Shown here: in pieces, positions 58,358-61,304 of the stretch
How the letters are laid out: every line of letters starts with the position of its first letter
Numbering within the stretch: the stretch's first letter is position 1
Assembly (NCBI GenBank): GCA_017303835.1
Contig: JAFLBI010000001.1
Coordinates: 1,736,001 to 1,800,000 of the forward strand
DNA length: 64,000 nucleotides
Direction: 5' to 3'
DNA from: Chitinophagales bacterium
GTDB lineage: Bacteria > Bacteroidota > Bacteroidia > Chitinophagales > Chitinophagaceae
The notes under the pieces: generated by a model
What the model saw: the letters and a program-made list of their open reading frames with translations, nothing else
What the model was told of the DNA's origin: nothing
Databases searched by the model: none
Translations under genes and position numbers: made by a program

Positions 58358-59026
58358 ATGAAAGGGATGAAACTGATTTTGATGACGATGCTCTGTGTGG
58401 CAGGCAGCTACAGTTGCAAATCTGTGCAAGTGGTGATGGAGAAAAAACCACCTGAAATACAATTATCGCTGAATACTGAAAAGATTGTACTAGTTGATCT
58501 CGCCAAAATACAAGCAAGAGGTTTGGTGATGACCAAACAGCGGGAAGAAGTGTTGCAGGAAATCAAGCAATTCTATTTCAAAGAAGGCAGTAAATACTTA
58601 GCAGATGCTTTGTCCATTTCTGTTGTAGTAGATACCACAACACATGCGGTGAAAACACCGGAAACTGTTGTGCAAGAAGTGCAGCAAACTTATGGACCTG
58701 CATTGGTGATACTCGTGAACAGTTTTGATGGGGGCTTTAATCAGGAAACGGTGAACCGCGAAAGAAATAATGATGGTTCTGTAAGTAAAACAGCTCAGTA
58801 CTCTGTGTATTGCACAACGGATGTCAGCATCTGGCACAATAACCAATTTTACCCCAAAAGAATAGAAGCTAGCAGACCACACTCTGAACGATCTGTCATG
58901 AGTGGTTTATTGGCAAGAGGCCCGGGCTATAGAGCCAATAAGCGCGATATTGAAGAAGCTGCCAAAGCGAATATGGTGATGATTGCAGACATATTCAGAG
59001 AAACAAGAAGACCAGTAATTAGATAA
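58358..59026 (+). CDS. Lipoprotein of unknown function
   Basis: Protein of 222 aa with a lipoprotein signal (lipobox GSYSC, Cys near residue 20). The mature part begins KSVQVVMEKKPPEIQL and includes GPALVILVNSFDGGF and a late EEAAKANMVMIADIFRETRRPV stretch. It resembles uncharacterised Bacteroidota lipoproteins (DUF6340-like is a guess). No catalytic motif. It marks the edge of the A+T-richer patch that follows. Confidence 0.65.
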   Translation: MKGMKLILMTMLCVAGSYSCKSVQVVMEKKPPEIQLSLNTEKIVLVDLAKIQARGLVMTKQREEVLQEIKQFYFKEGSKYLADALSISVVVDTTTHAVKTPETVVQEVQQTYGPALVILVNSFDGGFNQETVNRERNNDGSVSKTAQYSVYCTTDVSIWHNNQFYPKRIEASRPHSERSVMSGLLARGPGYRANKRDIEEAAKANMVMIADIFRETRRPVIR

Positions 59027-59036
59027 AGAAAAACAT

Positions 59037-59145
59037 CTTGGGCTTGCGTGCACGATTACCACAGCGTCTAAGGATTTGCGTGGGCTGAAAGAGCTCTGCT
59101 GATACTGGGAAGTCTAGTCAAAAAAACCTACAGTAGTAGCCCAAG
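59037..59145. repeat. 109-base segment bounded by an 8-base inverted repeat
   Basis: CTTGGGCT (59037-59044) and AGCCCAAG (59138-59145) are perfect inverted copies at the ends of a non-coding segment directly at the edge of the A+T-richer patch. The interior has no open frame. It could be a miniature inverted-repeat element or an RNA with a closing stem. I see no certain target-site duplication. Confidence 0.35.
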
Positions 59146-59190
59146 TACAAAACTTGACATTTGTCTGTGTAATATTATATGTAGTTTTCA

Positions 59191-59502
59191 CTAAGCTTTT
59201 TTAGGTGCCACTTTCTTTAGCGCCGCTTTTTTAGGTGCCACTTTCTTTAGCGCCGCTTTCTTAGGTGCCGCTTTTGGTTTGATATTTTTATATACAGGAA
59301 CAGGAATCCCATTTTCTATTTTGTAACCTGTTATAACTCTAGATTTTATTACAATCTTTTTTTGGGGTAATATGTCTTTAAACTTTTCGTACAGTCTTTT
59401 AATATCTTGTGGCTCTCTTTCGTAAATGTAAGAATACATTATAGGGTATTCAGTTGATTTTACTTCTATATTCTTAGTTGATGACATTATTAATTTTTTC
59501 AT
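59191..59502 (-). CDS. Small protein with Lys/Ala/Pro repeat tail
   Basis: Protein of 103 aa. Residues 1-75 form an ordinary compact stretch (STEYPIMYSYIYEREPQDIKRLYEKF region); residues about 76-103 are a repeat tail of KKAAP/KKVAP units encoded by 30-base tandem repeats. I do not recognise the N-terminal domain. Its ATG overlaps the stop of the zeta-toxin-like kinase gene by four bases, so the two are translationally coupled and probably work together. The tail resembles the histone-like protein at 41873. DNA or RNA binding by the tail is inference. Met 6 is an alternative start. Confidence 0.6.
   Translation of the reverse strand: MKKLIMSSTKNIEVKSTEYPIMYSYIYEREPQDIKRLYEKFKDILPQKKIVIKSRVITGYKIENGIPVPVYKNIKPKAAPKKAALKKVAPKKAALKKVAPKKA
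59195..59260. repeat. 30-base tandem repeat encoding the basic tail
   Basis: Two identical 30-base units (59195-59224 and 59225-59254) followed by a diverging partial copy. Each encodes ten residues, in frame, so copy-number change would lengthen or shorten the basic tail without shifting the frame. Confidence 0.8.
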
Positions 59503-60422
59503 GCTTTAAATAAATTTGCTGGATTATTAGTGTTGCTTTTCAAAATACATTTAGGCTCTTCACCTTCCTTAACGTCTGTACTAATGATGCCGTAACTTTC
59601 TATCAGATCTGCCCTATGTGTTATGGCTTTGTAGAAGGCGATTGTAGGATTATTTGCATATGTATCAAAAATTAAGCCTAAAGGAACATATCTGTCTGTT
59701 TTATCAAATCTAGTCAATGCCCTTTTTGTTGCTTTAACCCTATCTAATTCAACTAATGTCAAGTGGACTTTATAATTACTTTTCTTCAAAATTTCGATAA
59801 GCCCTAGTAAGCCATCAAAATTAGACCCAATCTTGGGTAGAATTATATTAGCACCCACTTCCTTACAATAATCGAATAAAGACTTAAATCTAGCAGGATT
59901 GTTTTCACCGAAAACTATTCGATCTGATTCTTCGTGAACTAGCGTTGCACCAAATGGCAATGCAGTGAATTCAGGCAACTTCCTTTTCGCATAATCTGAG
60001 TCGAGTATATAACCACCATATTTATCTGCAACTATATTGGATATTCCAGATTTACCAGAGGCAGGTAGCCCAGTAATTATATATGCGTTGAATTGAGTTT
60101 GCACTGTTGTTAAAGGAAAAGCTCCTCCTTTTCCAAGCTCAATATCCTCATCCTTTTCTAACCGCTTTTGAGTTAATAATTCTAAAACAATTGTTTCCCG
60201 AAGCTTTCGTCTGCTTTTTGCGCTACGGTATTTTGCTATTCTATAAGATTTACTACTTACACTTATTAATGTTTCATCGAAATTTTCAATATTAAGTTCA
60301 GTTGAAACAATCTTTGGAACAATTCCATACTTTTCATCTATATCAAAATCATAATTTAAGGCATTTTCCAAAAAATGTTCGACAAGTTCGAAATTGTTAA
60401 GTGGTCTGCTTGTTTTAGCCAT
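59499..60422 (-). CDS. Zeta-toxin-like P-loop kinase
   Basis: Protein of 307 aa. The N-terminal ~110 residues are unrecognised. The kinase part starts near 113 with Walker A GLPASGKS and the acidic DSDYAKRKLPEF motif typical of zeta toxins and related P-loop phosphotransferases, followed by ATLVHEESDRIV and ELDRVKATKRALTRFDKTDRYVPLGLI, a zeta-like C-terminal block. Zeta toxins phosphorylate UDP-N-acetylglucosamine, but related kinases modify other substrates. The neighbour at 59191 is not an obvious epsilon-type antitoxin. The gene is A+T-richer than its surroundings, suggesting transfer. Confidence 0.7.
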   Translation of the reverse strand: MAKTSRPLNNFELVEHFLENALNYDFDIDEKYGIVPKIVSTELNIENFDETLISVSSKSYRIAKYRSAKSRRKLRETIVLELLTQKRLEKDEDIELGKGGAFPLTTVQTQFNAYIITGLPASGKSGISNIVADKYGGYILDSDYAKRKLPEFTALPFGATLVHEESDRIVFGENNPARFKSLFDYCKEVGANIILPKIGSNFDGLLGLIEILKKSNYKVHLTLVELDRVKATKRALTRFDKTDRYVPLGLIFDTYANNPTIAFYKAITHRADLIESYGIISTDVKEGEEPKCILKSNTNNPANLFKA

Positions 60423-60501
60423 ATCTAAAGTTAAATAAATTTAGACTATTTTAAGTTTGCGCATAAAATTCTGGGCTTTGCAAAGGTCAGCAATAAATAT
60501 T

Positions 60502-60525
60502 CCATAGCCTTATTCTAAACTATGG
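60502..60525 (-). other. Hairpin-like repeat between the two accessory genes
   Basis: CCATAG (60502-60507) and CTATGG (60520-60525) flank a 12-base centre in the 206-base gap between the kinase and the 60629 gene. On the minus strand an AT-rich run follows, so it could be a weak terminator for the 60629 gene. Nothing else stands out in the gap. Confidence 0.35.
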
Positions 60526-60628
60526 CTTTATTGGTTAAAGTAAGAATAAAAATATTGATTAACCTATCAAAGCTGGATTGTTCATTACTTAAAAACCAAA
60601 TTGAACAAAGCCGTTTGCTAACAGTATT

Positions 60629-61261
60629 TTAAAGGTAGCTTTTTTTCTGATCGACCCAACCATTCGTTAAAATGATGATACCTTCTGTTATTTTATTCAT
60701 CCAAAATACAGAACCATGTTTTTCACTATCTGAGATAAAATTATCGTGTAAGCCAATTGTAAAATTTACATGCATTTCAGTTTGCTGTGGCTTCATAGAA
60801 GCAAATATAGTTTGATCACTAAAATGAATGAATGCGTTTCCTGTATCATAAACTTTTTGAACCCAGTCAAACCCACTTACTTGATTTAGTTTACTTACTA
60901 GATATGTATCAGTTAAGTTTTTATTTGATATATCTTTTATATTTCTAACAGGTGTGCCAGAAAAAACGAGTTTAGCAAATTCATCGACATTGAAATTAAT
61001 CAACTGCGGTGCATACAATCTTAATAATGTATCAACATGAACTCTTACTAATGGCGCCGCTGCTATAAAATTTTTACTGCGTATTAAATCTGAAAATCCT
61101 TTGATAATGTTTACAGATCGATTTAAGATTCCTATTGTATAGATATCAAACATGTAAAACCCTGGAGGTATTTCCAAGCATTCTTTTCCTAATTGGGTAA
61201 TTAGTTTTATTTGCAAATCAAGATTTTCCAATAACTCCTCAATACTACTGTTTGTTTCCAT
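60629..61261 (-). CDS. Unrecognised helical protein of the accessory patch
   Basis: Protein of 210 aa, mostly alpha-helical by pattern. It contains RVHVDTLLRLYAP (near residue 73) and YDTGNAFIHFSD (near residue 140), reminiscent of DUF5677/HEPN-like families that sense or cleave RNA, but I cannot confirm the diagnostic R-x4-6-H pair. It is A+T-rich like its neighbour and on the same strand as the zeta-like kinase, 206 bases upstream of it. It may belong to the same accessory module. Confidence 0.5.
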   Translation of the reverse strand: METNSSIEELLENLDLQIKLITQLGKECLEIPPGFYMFDIYTIGILNRSVNIIKGFSDLIRSKNFIAAAPLVRVHVDTLLRLYAPQLINFNVDEFAKLVFSGTPVRNIKDISNKNLTDTYLVSKLNQVSGFDWVQKVYDTGNAFIHFSDQTIFASMKPQQTEMHVNFTIGLHDNFISDSEKHGSVFWMNKITEGIIILTNGWVDQKKSYL

Positions 61262-61304
61262 AAAATAGTGACTAACTCTAAAATATAGGAAAGTTATGAG
61301 ATGA

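What the first reader, a model, noticed from the sequence alone, without database searches (positions are those of the whole stretch)
59037..61261. A+T-rich accessory patch with a zeta-like kinase, a coupled basic-tail protein and an unknown helical protein
The zeta-toxin-like kinase (59499-60422) overlaps the ATG of a small protein with a Lys/Ala/Pro tail (59191-59502) by four bases. A third, unrecognised protein, possibly HEPN-like (60629-61261), is on the same strand. The base composition is visibly A+T-richer than the flanking core genes. Classical zeta toxins pair with an epsilon antitoxin, which this small protein does not resemble. The pair could be a new toxin-partner or phage-defence arrangement, with the basic tail guiding it to nucleic acid or to its kinase.
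Basis: partly seen in the sequence, partly recalled or inferred. Interest (0 to 1): 0.65.

Follow-up and report, generated by a model that had tools for sequence, protein, structure and literature searches.

The report
Zeta-like kinase with unnamed downstream partner
A rare mobile pair of bacterial genes, a kinase of the zeta-toxin kind followed at once by a small protein of no known family, recurs as a two-gene unit in at least four bacterial phyla and is probably a toxin with a previously unnamed kind of antitoxin.

Summary
At 59499-60422 (-) lies a 307-aa kinase, overlapped (ATGA) by a 103-aa ORF directly downstream, in an A+T-rich insert (window 59069-61304) that is absent from, or replaced by other cargo in, two genomes of the same genus. 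The kinase is zeta-type: Pfam, profile and Foldseek comparisons lead to epsilon/zeta, PezT, gonococcal zeta1 and AvrRxo1 structures. Catalytic residues are invariant in 42 homologs, but the UDP-GlcNAc-binding residues are replaced. The main result is co-occurrence: of 48 related kinase loci (Bacteroidota, Bacillota, Pseudomonadota, Fusobacteriota), 47 have a short ORF at the kinase's 3' end. A held-out profile test ranks the window's partner first among 2,294 ORFs; 37 of 48 partner proteins fall in the top 1%. The conserved part is one amphipathic helix (IYxxExxDI) behind a basic N-terminus. The third protein (weakly DUF5677-like) is unlinked cargo. Most likely this is a toxin-first zeta-type toxin-antitoxin module with an undescribed antitoxin and a substrate other than UDP-GlcNAc; toxicity, neutralisation and substrate are untested.

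The parts
59499..60422 (-). zeta-type kinase, 307 aa, first gene of the pair
   Evidence: PF06414 E 1.2e-10, over the curated cut-off; profile match to 1GVN/3Q8X E 3e-10; best Foldseek matches of two relatives' models are zeta, PezT and AvrRxo1 structures
60114..60422 (-). N-terminal helical domain of the kinase, about residues 1-103, conserved in the family and without a known match
   Evidence: R6, R61, R71, L74, L82, G100 and P103 invariant in 42 homologs; three helices in the model of a relative; the match to the zeta structures starts at about residue 109
60048..60071 (-). Walker A motif GLPASGKS (residues 118-125); with D143, R238 and R244 the catalytic set
   Evidence: K124, S125, D143, R238 and R244 invariant in 42 of 42; equivalents of zeta K46, T47, D67, R158 and R171 (the R171 pairing rests on prior knowledge of zeta)
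59191..59502 (-). partner protein, 103 aa, proposed antitoxin; start overlaps the kinase stop (ATGA)
   Evidence: held-out profile ranks it first of 2,294 ORFs, E 0.0026; 46% identical to the partner in L009; no Pfam, PADLOC or NCBIfam match of note
59371..59451 (-). conserved helix of the partner, residues 18-44 (EYPIMYSYIYEREPQDIKRLYEKFKDI)
   Evidence: shared with L007, L008 and L009 and, as IYxxExxDI, with the wider family
59195..59284 (-). 15-bp tandem repeat, 5 copies, coding the Lys/Ala/Pro tail
   Evidence: absent from the closest partners
59069..61304 (.). insert boundaries, from loss of homology with the same-genus genome G001
60629..61261 (-). third protein, 210 aa, weakly DUF5677-like; separate accessory gene, not part of the module
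60502..60525 (-). terminator-like hairpin between the third gene and the kinase
   Evidence: consensus match only

Best explanation
A two-gene toxin-antitoxin module of the zeta kind in toxin-first order. Shown: the first gene encodes a zeta-type kinase with an intact catalytic set and an extra N-terminal helical domain; the second encodes a small protein of a distinct family whose conserved part is one amphipathic helix behind a basic stretch; the two genes travel together. Inferred: the free kinase phosphorylates a small molecule or nucleotide other than UDP-GlcNAc and stops growth; the partner, translationally coupled to it, binds through its helix and blocks it; the module is held on mobile cargo as an addiction or phage-response element.
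For: Zeta fold and catalytic residues. UDP-GlcNAc contacts E100, T118, R120, T121, T128 (listed in PMC4938570) are not conserved in the 42 homologs. Short ORF at the 3' end of the kinase in 47 of 48 related loci; of 45 measured (44 loci and the window) 37 start within 25 bp and 11 have the 4-base overlap. Held-out profile test: 26 of 48 partner proteins rank first of 2,294 ORFs, 37 in the top 1%, window rank 1. Fewer nonsynonymous than synonymous changes per site in all 8 partner pairs compared. Kinase broken but partner kept in L009 and L046. No other family recurs next to the kinase in more than 4 of 134 neighbours. Sporadic: none of the other 394 phylum genomes at E 1e-25, one close and one weak match among 100 relatives. 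The cargo site varies between siblings. Precedent: AvrRxo1-Arc1, a zeta-fold toxin with a downstream antitoxin validated in E. coli (PMC4938570).
Against: No toxicity, binding or neutralisation is shown. Docking of the partner is not established: the L017 read-through model (pTM 0.86, helix pLDDT 77-84) is compatible with it, the L020 model (pTM 0.74) does not support it, and no coordinates or interface scores were returned. Most TA modules put the antitoxin first. About a quarter of the partners fall outside the top 1% in the held-out test. No copies found on PLSDB plasmids with two queries. The kinase's own N-terminal domain could be the inhibitor instead, as in EzeT.
Confidence: 0.62

Rival explanations
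1. Two-gene abortive-infection system: the kinase is the effector and the small protein is its sensor or activator rather than a simple antitoxin; it responds to phage infection.
For: Variable cargo site, sporadic distribution, copies on predicted viral contigs L087-L090, some neighbours matching defence models such as RmrA, PDC-S27 and CBASS E1-E2.
Against: Neighbours are mixed and mostly not defence genes; no PADLOC hit for kinase or partner; no data on phage.
Confidence: 0.18
2. The N-terminal domain of the kinase is the inhibitor in cis (EzeT-like); the partner is a regulator or localiser, for example a nucleic-acid-binding protein through its basic N-terminus.
For: The N-terminal domain carries as many invariant residues as parts of the catalytic core; EzeT has an inhibiting N-terminal 82 residues (PMC4803016); partners are basic in the first half, median net charge +8.
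Against: EzeT is described as a solitary toxin, whereas here the partner is nearly always present; a conserved helix and operon coupling suggest a protein-protein role. Homology of the two N-terminal domains was not tested.
Confidence: 0.12
3. Kinase and small protein form an RNA or DNA end-modifying or nucleotide-modifying enzyme, with the basic protein holding the nucleic acid.
For: Polynucleotide kinases appear lower in the Foldseek lists; the partner N-terminus is basic.
Against: The 13 best matches of the L020 model and the 11 best of the L017 model are all zeta-type toxins; the set K124, D143, R238, R244 is that of zeta.
Confidence: 0.05
4. An ordinary metabolic kinase next to an unrelated chance ORF.
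For: PF06414 itself is weakly specific: it rings in all 14 control genomes.
Against: Co-occurrence, held-out test, fold matches, sporadic distribution.
Confidence: 0.02

Closest known systems
AvrRxo1-Arc1 (Xanthomonas and environmental homologs)
   Same: Zeta-fold kinase with extra N-terminal sequence, short partner gene directly downstream, UDP-GlcNAc residues not conserved, low-G+C mobile module, kinase decays while the partner is kept
   Different: Not among the 60 sequence matches shown in the PDB profile search, and only distant fold matches. Arc1 motif KExFD(x25-27)(Y/L)ExxYY absent from all 48 partners. AvrRxo1 is 414-450 aa in the table read, this family about 305. AvrRxo1 is a type III effector phosphorylating NAD (PMC5491322); secretion and substrate here are unknown
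epsilon/zeta of pSM19035 and PezAT
   Same: Kinase fold, Walker A, catalytic Asp and the two Arg
   Different: Antitoxin upstream (prior knowledge) and unrelated in sequence; UDP-GlcNAc contacts replaced; extra N-terminal domain
EzeT of E. coli
   Same: Zeta kinase with an N-terminal extension of about 80-100 residues
   Different: EzeT is described as solitary and inhibited in cis; here a trans partner is nearly always present. Not compared by sequence
ng_zeta1 of Neisseria gonorrhoeae
   Same: Zeta fold (Foldseek hit 6eph)
   Different: Larger (about 400 aa) and with an epsilon-type antitoxin

Membership tests
Zeta toxin kinases (PF06414) | Match to the family profile over its curated cut-off | tested here: met
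   41.7 bits against 22.3; 42 of 42 homologs match
Zeta toxin kinases (PF06414) | Zeta fold | tested here: met
   Best Foldseek matches 3q8x, 1gvn, 2p5t for two models of relatives; the window protein itself was not folded
Zeta toxin kinases (PF06414) | Catalytic Lys, Asp and Arg residues | tested here: met
   K124, D143, R238, R244 invariant
UDP-GlcNAc-phosphorylating zeta/PezT | Substrate residues E100, T118, R120, T121, T128 | tested here: not met
   Commonest residues K/E/P, I, H/N, D/N and L at the aligned positions
epsilon/zeta TA module | epsilon or PezA antitoxin encoded upstream | tested here: not met
   Partner is downstream and matches no family or solved structure
AvrRxo1-Arc1 | Arc1 motif KExFD(x25-27)(Y/L)ExxYY in the partner | tested here: not met
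   0 of 48 partners
AvrRxo1-Arc1 | Downstream small partner after a zeta-fold kinase | tested here: met
Type II toxin-antitoxin | Toxin arrests growth and the partner neutralises it by binding | not testable with these tools
   needs expression and pull-down
Anti-phage defence system | Match to a described defence model, or protection against phage | tested here: inconclusive
   No PADLOC hit; protection not testable
EzeT-type self-inhibited zeta toxin | N-terminal domain that inhibits the kinase in cis | not testable with these tools
   A conserved N-terminal domain is present; its function and its kinship with EzeT are unknown
HEPN/DUF5677 (third protein) | Family profile match and nucleolytic R-x4-6-H motif | tested here: not met
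   12.8 bits against a cut-off of 27.1; no R-x4-6-H in the sequence (read from the translation)

The most novel reading that the evidence does not exclude
A separate branch of zeta-type kinase toxins with a substrate different from both UDP-GlcNAc and NAD, neutralised by a new antitoxin family made of one helix with a disordered basic arm, spread over at least four phyla.
Probability: 0.4. Interest if true: 0.65.

Novelty: new variant of a known kind. Interest (0 to 1): 0.5.

Why it matters
Many zeta-like genes are filed as orphan toxins without antitoxins. Here a partner too divergent for single-sequence searches is made visible by gene position and a profile, which gives a set of 48 loci for testing what the kinase phosphorylates and how a minimal helix could silence a zeta-fold enzyme. 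The replaced substrate pocket predicts a target that is not the classical cell-wall precursor.

Tried and rejected
Single-protein searches found no family: the window kinase alone in genome contigs and plasmids, and in solved structures. Phage records gave only distant core matches in Bacteroides phages; a second query gave none. Viral contigs: of 67 hits only L087-L090 clearly match beyond the core; the rest are mostly core-only P-loop kinases and were not used. PF06414 as a search family was useless for counting because it rings in almost every genome and all controls. The first held-out script gave no result because of a wrong program option and was rerun. Rejected: third protein as a member of the system; Lys/Ala/Pro tail as the functional part; strong claims of kinase-partner docking from the two models; recent spread between phyla as an argument, because the kinase tree largely follows phyla, Pseudomonadota forming one well-supported group.

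Full report
Observation. The kinase (59499-60422) comes first; its stop codon overlaps the start of the 103-aa ORF (59191-59502) as ATGA. The third ORF (60629-61261) lies upstream, separated by 206 bp and a terminator-like hairpin. G+C is 29-36% in the patch and about 40-50% around it.

The patch is an insert. G001, a genome of the same genus that is 93-95% identical in the flanks, loses homology at window positions 59069 and 61304. In that genome the thiolase flank is followed by other cargo: a 385-aa protein without a family and an IS3-type transposase pair. In G002 the thiolase lies next to the oxidoreductase gene with only a short gap and a hairpin between.

The kinase. It matches PF06414, but that family also rings in all 14 control genomes, so the match alone says little. 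A profile of 42 homologs finds the pSM19035 zeta structures at E 3e-10 over residues 109-243. AlphaFold models of two relatives (L017 and L020) match zeta, PezT, AvrRxo1 and gonococcal zeta1 structures ahead of metabolic kinases. Zeta's K46, T47, D67, R158 and R171 correspond to K124, S125, D143, R238 and R244, invariant in 42 of 42. Of the residues that hold UDP-GlcNAc in zeta (E100, T118, R120, T121, T128; PMC4938570) none is conserved; the family has its own N...PKIG signature there. That makes UDP-GlcNAc an unlikely substrate; this is inference. An N-terminal helical domain of about 103 residues is well conserved and has no match.

The partner. The search for related loci with a two-sequence alignment gave 48 loci in Bacteroidota, Bacillota, Pseudomonadota and Fusobacteriota (the selection favours the DSDxAKRK motif used as a search pattern). 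A short ORF sits at the 3' end of the kinase in 47 of them: 44 from the ORF script, L007 and L009 by tblastn, and L046 by the profile; L053 is cut by its contig end. Of 45 measured (44 loci and the window), lengths are 52-136 aa (median 84), 37 start within 25 bp of the kinase stop and 11 have the same 4-base overlap. Sequence identity is low, so I tested relatedness by leaving each of 48 partner proteins out of the profile and ranking it against 2,293 other ORFs of the same loci: 26 rank first and 37 fall in the top 1%; the window's partner ranks first, E 0.0026. Its closest relative, in L009, shares EYPvxYSYIYERExxDIxRL. Partners are basic in the first half (median +8) and neutral in the second. 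In 8 partner pairs nonsynonymous changes per site are fewer than synonymous ones, with synonymous sites near saturation. No partner family is known in Pfam, NCBIfam or PDB sequences, and the Arc1 motif is absent.

The Lys/Ala/Pro tail is coded by a 15-bp tandem repeat (59195-59284) that the nearest partners lack. In L009 the kinase has a frameshift and in L046 a stop, with the partner ORF kept. Two cases are few, and sequencing error is possible, but the direction is what a toxin-antitoxin pair predicts and what was reported for AvrRxo1-Arc1.

Mechanism. I commit to a zeta-type toxin-antitoxin module in toxin-first order, confidence 0.62. The complex itself is not shown. In the L017 read-through chain (natural stop read as a residue) the partner helix has pLDDT 77-84 and the chain pTM 0.86, which would be hard to reach with the helix unplaced; in the L020 chain pTM is 0.74, about what the kinase alone would give. 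I therefore count docking as open.

Distribution. At E 1e-25 none of the other 394 genomes sampled from the phylum has the kinase. Among 100 relatives one has a close copy (G014) and one a weak match. Neighbouring genes are mixed, with some integrases, transposases and defence-model hits. The kinase tree follows phyla to a large extent, so the family looks old and sparse rather than recently spread everywhere.

Third protein. It reaches only 12.8 bits against DUF5677 (cut-off 27.1), lacks the R-x4-6-H motif, occurs in other genomes and on plasmids, and is near none of the 48 related kinases.

Comparison. It works like AvrRxo1-Arc1 in gene order and in the changed substrate pocket, but is not a member by the partner motif. 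It is a zeta-family kinase by the sequence and fold tests made here, and not an epsilon/zeta module. A search of the open-access library found no description of this pair; subscription journals were not covered.

Noticed in passing
G001 C13 (locus L167:4685-7387): At the same chromosomal site after the thiolase a sibling genome carries other cargo: a 385-aa protein with no Pfam match, a 120-aa protein with a hydrophobic stretch and an IS3-type transposase pair. The site may be a hot spot.
   Followed up: partly
L036:5906-6193 and L036:6174-6452: Chitinophaga filiformis has two tandem partner genes behind one kinase.
   Followed up: no
L009:5001-5866; L046:4986-5924: Kinase broken by a frameshift or a stop while the partner ORF is open.
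   Followed up: partly
L043, L048, L050, L052: Kinases whose N-terminal domain is missing or too divergent to match, with a downstream ORF still present.
   Followed up: no
L087-L090: Four predicted viral contigs carry relatives of the kinase beyond the core; two appear to be the same loci as in the Veronia and Pygmaiobacter genomes, so probably prophages.
   Followed up: no
window 60629-61261: A 210-aa weakly DUF5677-like protein with relatives on plasmids of Bacteroides, Vibrio and Sphingopyxis; an uncharacterised accessory family.
   Followed up: partly
window 58358-59026: A 222-aa lipoprotein-like gene is present beside the oxidoreductase in G001 but missing from the thiolase-oxidoreductase junction in G002.
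   Followed up: no
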